From positions 136,497 through 200,496 of the forward strand of contig DUBB01000043.1 in the NCBI GenBank assembly GCA_012960535.1: DNA of 64,000 nt, in the 5' to 3' direction. The position numbers and the translations under genes are program-made. This document shows positions 13,800 to 14,252 of this stretch, piece after piece; position 1 is the first letter of the stretch, and every line of letters starts with the position of its first letter. The notes beneath the pieces were generated by a model, which saw nothing but the letters and a program-made list of their open reading frames with translations, had not been told where the DNA came from and did not search any database. The DNA comes from Gammaproteobacteria bacterium. Lineage in GTDB: Bacteria; Pseudomonadota; Gammaproteobacteria; Pseudomonadales; Azotimanducaceae.

Positions 13800-14252
13800 T
13801 TAACGGCGCTTATCCAGCAAGTCTCTGAGCCAATCAATATGGCGGTTGATTCGGAAATCAGCCTGCACAGAAGTCGTAATAATCTGCTGCTGATCAATCA
13901 GAAAAGAAACTCTACGAACACCAATGCCAAGCGGGCCATTTACACCGTAGGATTTTATGACCTGTTTATCTGAATCGACAAGCAGAGGAAAGCTCAGTTT
14001 ATGCTGAGCGCTGAATCGCTGATGGCTTTCTCTGCTCTGCGGACTGATACCGGCTATATGCAAGTCATGGTGACTCAAATCAGTGTGCATATCACGTATG
14101 CTACAGGCTTGTTTAGTTCATCCTGGGGTGAAATCTGCGGGATAAAAATAGAGCATCAAAGGGCCCATGCTGACAAGGTCTACTAACCGTATCAACTCTC
14201 CGTGCTGATCAGACAATTCAAAATCGGGTGCTTTACTGCCTACCTTCAACAT
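13800..14252 (-). CDS. Selenocysteine-containing BCP-type peroxiredoxin (TGA at the peroxidatic position)
   Basis: Read through one in-frame TGA (14118-14120), this is a complete 150-residue thioredoxin-fold peroxidase of the BCP/PrxQ type. It has MLKVGSKAPDFEL, then LYFYPADFTPG, the TGA as residue 45, TKQAC with the resolving C50, SIRD, and a normal C-terminal half (AGISPQS, FPLLVDSD, YGV). In BCP proteins residue 45/46 is the peroxidatic cysteine in TPGCT, so the TGA replaces exactly that codon. The frame is undamaged on both sides, and a hairpin follows the TGA. The most likely reading is selenocysteine insertion; a nonsense mutation is the alternative. The ATG lies five bases after the MaoC stop, so the two form an operon. 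Automatic annotation would start it at 14090 and lose the active site. Confidence 0.82.
14084..14105 (-). promoter_or_regulatory. Candidate bacterial SECIS hairpin
   Basis: On the coding strand, bases 13-34 after the TGA fold into a stem of eight pairs: three pairs, a bulged A, then GCATA paired with TATGC. The apical loop is CGTGA. The loop begins 22 bases after the TGA, and G is its second base. Bacterial SECIS elements need an apical loop about 16-37 bases from the UGA with a G among its first two bases, so both rules are met. It would be bound by SelB. Confidence 0.65.

What the first reader, a model, noticed from the sequence alone, without database searches (positions are those of the whole stretch)
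13800..14252. Candidate selenoprotein: BCP/PrxQ-type peroxiredoxin with TGA at the peroxidatic cysteine
The frame is intact on both sides of one TGA at 14118-14120. The surrounding residues (FTPG-U-TKQACSIRD) match the BCP active site, where the U position is always the peroxidatic Cys and the Cys five residues on is the resolver. A plain nonsense mutation would hit this exact codon only by chance. Sec-containing peroxiredoxins are known in some bacteria, but gene callers usually truncate them; here the caller would start at 14090 and lose the active site.
Basis: partly seen in the sequence, partly recalled or inferred. Interest (0 to 1): 0.88.

Follow-up and report, generated by a model that had tools for sequence, protein, structure and literature searches.

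The report
Selenocysteine-containing PrxQ-type peroxiredoxin gene
A gammaproteobacterial genome encodes a peroxide-destroying enzyme whose active-site cysteine is, by all sequence evidence, replaced by selenocysteine through a recoded stop codon; the gene is real and conserved, but enzymes of this kind were already known.

Summary
Confirmed. Minus-strand frame 14252-13800 encodes a 150-residue PrxQ/BCP-type peroxiredoxin with one in-frame TGA (14118-14120) at the peroxidatic position, FTPG-U-TKQAC. It is almost certainly a selenoprotein. (1) The own genome holds selA, selB, selD and a tRNA-Sec with a UCA anticodon. (2) Thirteen genomes, 12 of one genus and one of a sister genus, carry the gene with TGA at that exact codon; 17 homologs from other genera have TGC/TGT. 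(3) dN is below dS on both sides of the TGA. (4) A hairpin, GCAUA-CGUGA-UAUGC, starts its loop 21 nt after the UGA. It fits the bacterial SECIS layout, though its energy is marginal; it pairs in 13 of 13 Sec genes and 1 of 17 Cys genes. (5) Two other TGA-containing Prx groups have the same CGUGA at the same distance on different stems (25 of 26 and 3 of 3 pair). TGA still ends 14 of 48 window ORFs. Against: selA and selB were not found in 4 of the 13 drafts. Sec-Prx of COG1225 (Bcp) has been reported since 2005, so this is a new member of a known kind. The interesting extra is the shared SECIS loop on the Arg-Asp codons.

The parts
13800..14252 (-). PrxQ-type selenoprotein gene, 150 codons plus TAA, read through one TGA
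14118..14120 (-). TGA codon 45, read as selenocysteine at the peroxidatic position (TPGU, TxxU motif)
   Evidence: TGA in 13 orthologs, TGC/TGT in 17 homologs of other genera
14103..14105 (-). TGT codon 50, candidate resolving Cys
   Evidence: aligned with the second Cys of 5epf; Cys in 12 of 13 Sec orthologs, Arg in L051
14087..14101 (-). bSECIS-like hairpin GCATA-CGTGA-TATGC; 21 nt lie between the TGA and the apical loop (14092-14096)
   Evidence: codons ATA CGT GAT invariant 13/13; five pairs formed 13/13 in Sec genes, 1/17 in Cys genes

Best explanation
The gene encodes a selenocysteine-containing PrxQ/BCP-type peroxiredoxin. During translation SelB, carrying Sec-tRNA(Sec), binds the hairpin GCAUA-CGUGA-UAUGC just after the UGA and selenocysteine is inserted at residue 45 (inferred from the conserved element and the machinery genes). 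The selenol attacks peroxide and becomes a selenenic acid; Cys50 then forms a selenenylsulfide with it, which a thioredoxin-like partner reduces (inferred from the PrxQ family and its conserved residues; not shown here). The Sec form most likely replaced an ancestral Cys once, near the base of this genus and a sister genus (inference; moderate tree support).
For: Machinery in the own genome: selA and selB side by side and selD beside tRNA-Sec, all on contig C42. Orthologs: 13 with TGA at codon 45, 17 homologs with TGC/TGT. Among the listed matches (list cut) from 369 genomes of the class only the window's own gene carries a TGA. dN below dS on both sides of the TGA in the six pairs compared, e.g. 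0.128/1.396 before and 0.186/1.102 after for L022 versus L024. SECIS: ATA, CGT, GAT are the only codon-invariant columns of 62 amino-acid-conserved ones in the Sec set; none of 39 in the Cys set. The five pairs form in 13/13 Sec and 1/17 Cys genes. CGUGA at 21 nt recurs in 26 FTGGU-type genes with another stem (25/26 paired) and in 3 STPGU-type genes with a third, six-pair stem and a 7-nt loop (3/3). TGA is a normal stop elsewhere: 14 of 48 window ORFs of 150 codons or more.
Against: The window's own minimal hairpin is weak: -4.4 kcal/mol for 22 nt and -6.5 for 50 nt with the hairpin forced, against a published limit of -7.5; 7 of 13 orthologs reach the limit with the forced 50-nt fold. The unconstrained 66-nt fold shows the hairpin in 7 of 13. 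selA and selB were not found over cut-off in 4 of the 13 genomes with the TGA gene (G002, G005, G006, G014), although G002 and G006 have selD and a tRNA-Sec match just under the cut-off; in G014 selD was not found either. The gene (C43) and the machinery (C42) lie on different contigs of one draft assembly. There is no protein evidence.
Confidence: 0.96

Rival explanations
1. Nonsense mutation: the gene is a pseudogene, or only the 96-aa downstream ORF is expressed.
For: Under table 11 the only listed ORF is the 96-aa one from 14090.
Against: The same stop in 13 genomes at the same codon; dN below dS on both sides; a nuclease-like neighbour kept in 11 of 11 other same-genus loci and a rhodanese-like one in 10 of 11; a frozen hairpin.
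Confidence: 0.01
2. The TGA is read as another amino acid by a code change, or by leaky read-through without selenium.
For: The frame is open past the TGA; 4 of 13 genomes lack a selA or selB match over cut-off.
Against: TGA ends 14 of 48 window ORFs. The TGA sits where homologs have Cys, and the full Sec machinery is in the own genome. Without Sec or Cys at position 45 the enzyme would lack its catalytic residue (family knowledge).
Confidence: 0.02
3. UGA is read as Sec, but the CGUGA hairpin is not the SECIS: its codons are frozen for another reason, such as coding constraint or common descent.
For: Arg-Asp is a conserved peptide here, the minimal hairpin is weak, and the free fold shows it in only 7 of 13.
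Against: The Cys homologs keep Arg-Asp but use an Arg codon other than CGT in 15 of 17 and pair in 1 of 17. Three Prx groups hold one loop motif at one distance on three different stems.
Confidence: 0.08

Closest known systems
Selenocysteine-containing peroxiredoxin, COG1225 (Bcp), TxxU motif, of the Sargasso Sea and GOS selenoproteomes (PMC1088965, PMC2398784) and the 2022 review PMC9312934
   Same: PF00578-type protein, TPGU = TxxU motif with Sec at the peroxidatic position
   Different: Here it is placed in a genome with its machinery, a restricted clade and a defined hairpin. No sequence from those papers was compared here.
PrxU of Eubacterium acidaminophilum (NCBIfam NF040737; link of the model to that protein recalled)
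   Same: Sec peroxiredoxin
   Different: Only 44.6 bits against a cut-off of 270: a different Prx subfamily, from a strict anaerobe
Cys-containing PrxQ/BCP thiol peroxidases (NCBIfam NF006960; PDB 3drn, 5epf)
   Same: Best curated match (117.2 bits) and best solved relatives; catalytic residue and second Cys five residues on, in 5epf
   Different: Below the NF006960 cut-off of 140; Sec in place of the peroxidatic Cys

Membership tests
Bacterial selenoprotein | In-frame UGA at a position where homologs have Cys | tested here: met
   13 TGA versus 17 TGC/TGT
Bacterial selenoprotein | selA, selB, selC, selD in the genome | tested here: met
   all four over cut-off in G000; 4 of the 13 genomes with the TGA gene have no selA or selB over cut-off
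Bacterial selenoprotein | bSECIS layout: loop 3-9 nt, upper stem 4-16 bp, G in the first two loop positions, loop 16-37 nt after the UGA | tested here: met
   loop 5 nt (CGUGA), stem 5 bp, G second, 21 nt
Bacterial selenoprotein | bSECIS free energy of -7.5 kcal/mol or lower | tested here: inconclusive
   own gene -6.5 with the hairpin forced in 50 nt, -11.2 for the unconstrained 66 nt that contains it; 7 of 13 reach -7.5 when forced
Bacterial selenoprotein | Sec in the protein | not testable with these tools
   needs 75Se label or mass spectrometry
PrxQ/BCP peroxiredoxin | AhpC-TSA domain and PxxxTxxC/U motif | tested here: met
   PF00578 120.4 bits; PADFTPGU
PrxQ/BCP peroxiredoxin | resolving Cys five residues after the peroxidatic residue (recalled as a PrxQ feature; not universal in the family) | tested here: met
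   Cys50; Arg instead in L051 of G034
PrxQ/BCP peroxiredoxin | NCBIfam NF006960 (thioredoxin-dependent thiol peroxidase) cut-off of 140 bits | tested here: not met
   117.2 bits; best of 13 NCBIfam matches all the same, so it is described as PrxQ-type and not filed under that equivalog

The most novel reading that the evidence does not exclude
In this family the bSECIS loop of peroxiredoxins lies exactly on the conserved Arg-Asp codons (CGU GAY), 21 nt after the UGA, on three different stems in three Prx groups. A Cys-encoding Prx gene would then be one base from a Sec codon and a few mostly synonymous changes from a working SECIS, so Cys-to-Sec switching of Prx enzymes could recur on this ready-made platform.
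Probability: 0.3. Interest if true: 0.55.

Novelty: new member of a known kind. Interest (0 to 1): 0.35.

Why it matters
It adds a well-supported, clade-wide selenoprotein that table-11 ORF calling cuts to a piece without its active site, in a family where the Sec trait is common (selA over cut-off in 48 of the 61 genomes of that family, against 5 of 36 from other families of the order). Sec and Cys forms of one gene in sister genera, with a clean SECIS difference, make a good system for asking how and why a Cys enzyme turns into a Sec enzyme.

Tried and rejected
Rfam over the whole window at gathering thresholds: no match. NCBIfam Sec-Prx model PrxU: far below its cut-off. Read-through scan of the window for further selenoproteins (at least 15 codons before and 40 after the TGA, little overlap with other ORFs): 16 candidates, the given gene among them; I judged the other 15 by eye only, saw no known active site, and searched none of them in a library. 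Own-genome scan with the pattern TGAAC-N19-CGTGA: 6 places, 2 of them the two Prx genes; the other 4 have short frames and no paired stem in the five-pair register. Genome-contig scan: of 26 loci only L052 (94% identity, MAG 'Gammaproteobacteria bacterium isolate NAT84') is a close relative; the other 25 are at 47% or less and were not used. L052's contig coordinates equal those of the G011 match, so it is probably the same record as L023.

Literature searches under PrxQ and 'bacterioferritin comigratory protein' listed no paper on a bacterial Sec form (listings only); the family is in print as 'Prx, COG1225'. Papers seen: passages of PMC13188914, PMC1088965, PMC1794560, PMC2398784, PMC9312934 and PMC5029168, and section 5 of PMC13188914 in full; the rest as listings. 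For the loop on Arg-Asp codons I ran one search and saw only its listing, so I do not claim that it is unpublished. The Sec clade has support 96/85 with all columns but 85/62 with the active-site and hairpin columns left out: one origin is likely, not shown. A first reading that the 3 STPGU-type genes lack a paired stem was wrong: it holds only for the 5-nt-loop register; with a 7-nt loop six pairs form in 3 of 3.

Full report
Observation. The finding's coordinates hold an open frame on the minus strand from ATG 14252 to TAA 13802-13800, with one TGA at 14118-14120, codon 45. Under table 11 only 13800-14090 (96 aa) is listed. The read-through product is an AhpC-TSA/Redoxin protein. It is closest among NCBIfam models to the thioredoxin-dependent thiol peroxidase NF006960, though below its cut-off (117.2 of 140). 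Its best match among solved structures is 3drn, named a BCP homolog; the TGA aligns with the Cys of TPGCTKEAC in the second best, 5epf.

Machinery. The window lies in a 4.24-Mb draft genome of 53 contigs, 93.6% complete, 3.7% contamination. selA (569.7 bits) and selB (425.8) are adjacent on C42. selD (255.3 bits, in a 742-aa ORF) lies beside a tRNA-Sec (49.8 bits, cut-off 47, anticodon loop CUUCAAA) on the same contig. ARAGORN calls a Lys tRNA over this stretch. The Prx gene is on another contig, C43, so the link rests on the assembly and on the agreement of relatives.

Relatives. One search covered 97 genomes, own included. I used the 30 loci it fetched, the best match of 30 genomes; one further match of similar strength (G017:C87) was not fetched. 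Thirteen have TGA at codon 45: the own genome, 11 of 14 others of the genus, and G034 of a sister genus. Seventeen, from other genera of the family, have TGC or TGT. The three same-genus genomes without the ortholog are G003 (73% complete), G009 (84%) and G012 (72%). In 369 genomes of the class the listed matches (the list is cut) hold no other TGA. selA is over cut-off in 9 of the 13 TGA genomes and in 14 of the 17 Cys genomes, 2 more having fragments, so Cys is kept where Sec would be possible. selB shows the same 9 of 13. selD is over cut-off in 9 of 13, not the same nine. The four without selA and selB are G002, G005, G006 and G014, 93, 62, 96 and 80% complete. G002 and G006 carry selD and a tRNA-Sec match with the CUUCAAA loop just under the Rfam cut-off (45.8 of 47); G005 has a selD fragment and a tRNA-Sec of 56 bits; in G014 neither was found over cut-off. 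A gap at the selA-selB place in these drafts is the likeliest reason, but this was not shown.

Selection and descent. dN is below dS before and after the TGA in all six pairs compared; the closest pair, L022/L023, has few changes (after: 0.03/0.063). A nuclease-like gene lies near the Prx in 11 of 11 other same-genus loci and a rhodanese-like gene in 10 of 11 (names given by eye, no library search). A gene with MaoC-type domains lies beside it in G000, G011 and G013, and also in two Cys loci (L038, L039), which points to one orthologous place. The Sec genes form one side of a branch with support 96/85, or 85/62 without the active-site and hairpin columns.

SECIS. After the UGA all 13 Sec genes read ATA-CGT-GAT-ATG over Ile-Arg-Asp-Met. 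Of 62 amino-acid-conserved columns only Ile, Arg and Asp never vary in codon (Met has one codon and was not counted); in the 17 Cys genes none of 39 is invariant. The RNA is a 5-bp stem with the loop CGUGA, 21 nt after the UGA. It meets the published loop, stem, G and spacing limits (PMC13188914 section 5). In the lower part one pair changes on both sides in one sequence (10 of the 13 sequences). The energy limit is not clearly met: own gene -6.5 with the hairpin forced in 50 nt, 7 of 13 at or below -7.5; the free 66-nt fold shows the hairpin in 7 of 13.

Shared loop. Besides the 13, one search listed 34 matches with a TGA (its list is cut); all 34 were fetched and examined. In 29 the TGA aligns with the peroxidatic position and CGUGA begins 21 nt later. 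Of these, 26 belong to an FTGGU-type group, whose CGCUG-type stem pairs in 25 of 26; one of the 26, L114, also holds a TAA in its match. The other 3 are of an STPGU type; they do not pair in the five-nt-loop register but form a six-pair stem with a 7-nt loop, CGUGAUC, in 3 of 3, with one pair changed from G-U to A-U in L101; that register is full in 0 of 13, 0 of 26 and 0 of 17 of the other sets. The remaining 5 (four UxxC types, one TPNU type) lack the loop. One FTGGU-type gene is in the own genome, about 8 kb from selB (C42:105754-106125). In the Cys PrxQ set the Arg codon is CGT in 2 of 17. The loop sits on Arg-Asp codons found in all three groups and in the Cys set; whether this is common descent or repeated use cannot be told here.

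Mechanism. Shown: the codon, its conservation, the frozen hairpin, the machinery genes. Inferred: SelB binding, Sec insertion, peroxide reduction by the selenol, resolution by Cys50 and reduction by a thioredoxin-like partner. G034's copy has Arg in place of Cys50, so it would need another resolving thiol.

Known ground. Sec-Prx of COG1225 had 43 genes in the Sargasso Sea set with a TxxU motif (PMC1088965, passages), and a 2022 review lists 'Peroxiredoxin (Prx), COG1225 (Bcp), TxxU' (PMC9312934, passages). So the kind is known and this gene is a new member. The named relative found is a MAG, 'Gammaproteobacteria bacterium isolate NAT84'; finer taxonomy and habitat were not determined.

Noticed in passing
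L078:12755-13126 (G000:C42:105754-106125, outside the window): A second Prx with TGA at the peroxidatic position (FTGG-U-TLQC) and a CGCTG-CGTGA-CAGCG hairpin, about 8 kb from selA-selB.
   Followed up: yes
L079:3642-5870 (G000:C42): selD sits in a 742-aa ORF with a long N-terminal extension, perhaps like the Ndh-SelD fusions described in the GOS paper (PMC2398784, passages); the extension was not searched.
   Followed up: no
L001:1499-1596: ARAGORN calls a tRNA-Lys (ctt) where Rfam gives a tRNA-Sec (1501-1589) with a UCA anticodon.
   Followed up: partly
L051 (G034): Sec PrxQ ortholog with Arg instead of the resolving Cys (TAQARGIRD).
   Followed up: no
L083, L084 (G002, G006): Genomes with the Sec Prx, selD and a tRNA-Sec match but no selA or selB over cut-off, at 93 and 96% completeness.
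   Followed up: partly
L094, L107, L112, L113, L109: TGA-containing Trx-like matches in relatives: four with a UxxC motif and one with TPNU; the sequence after the TGA lacks the CGUGA loop.
   Followed up: no
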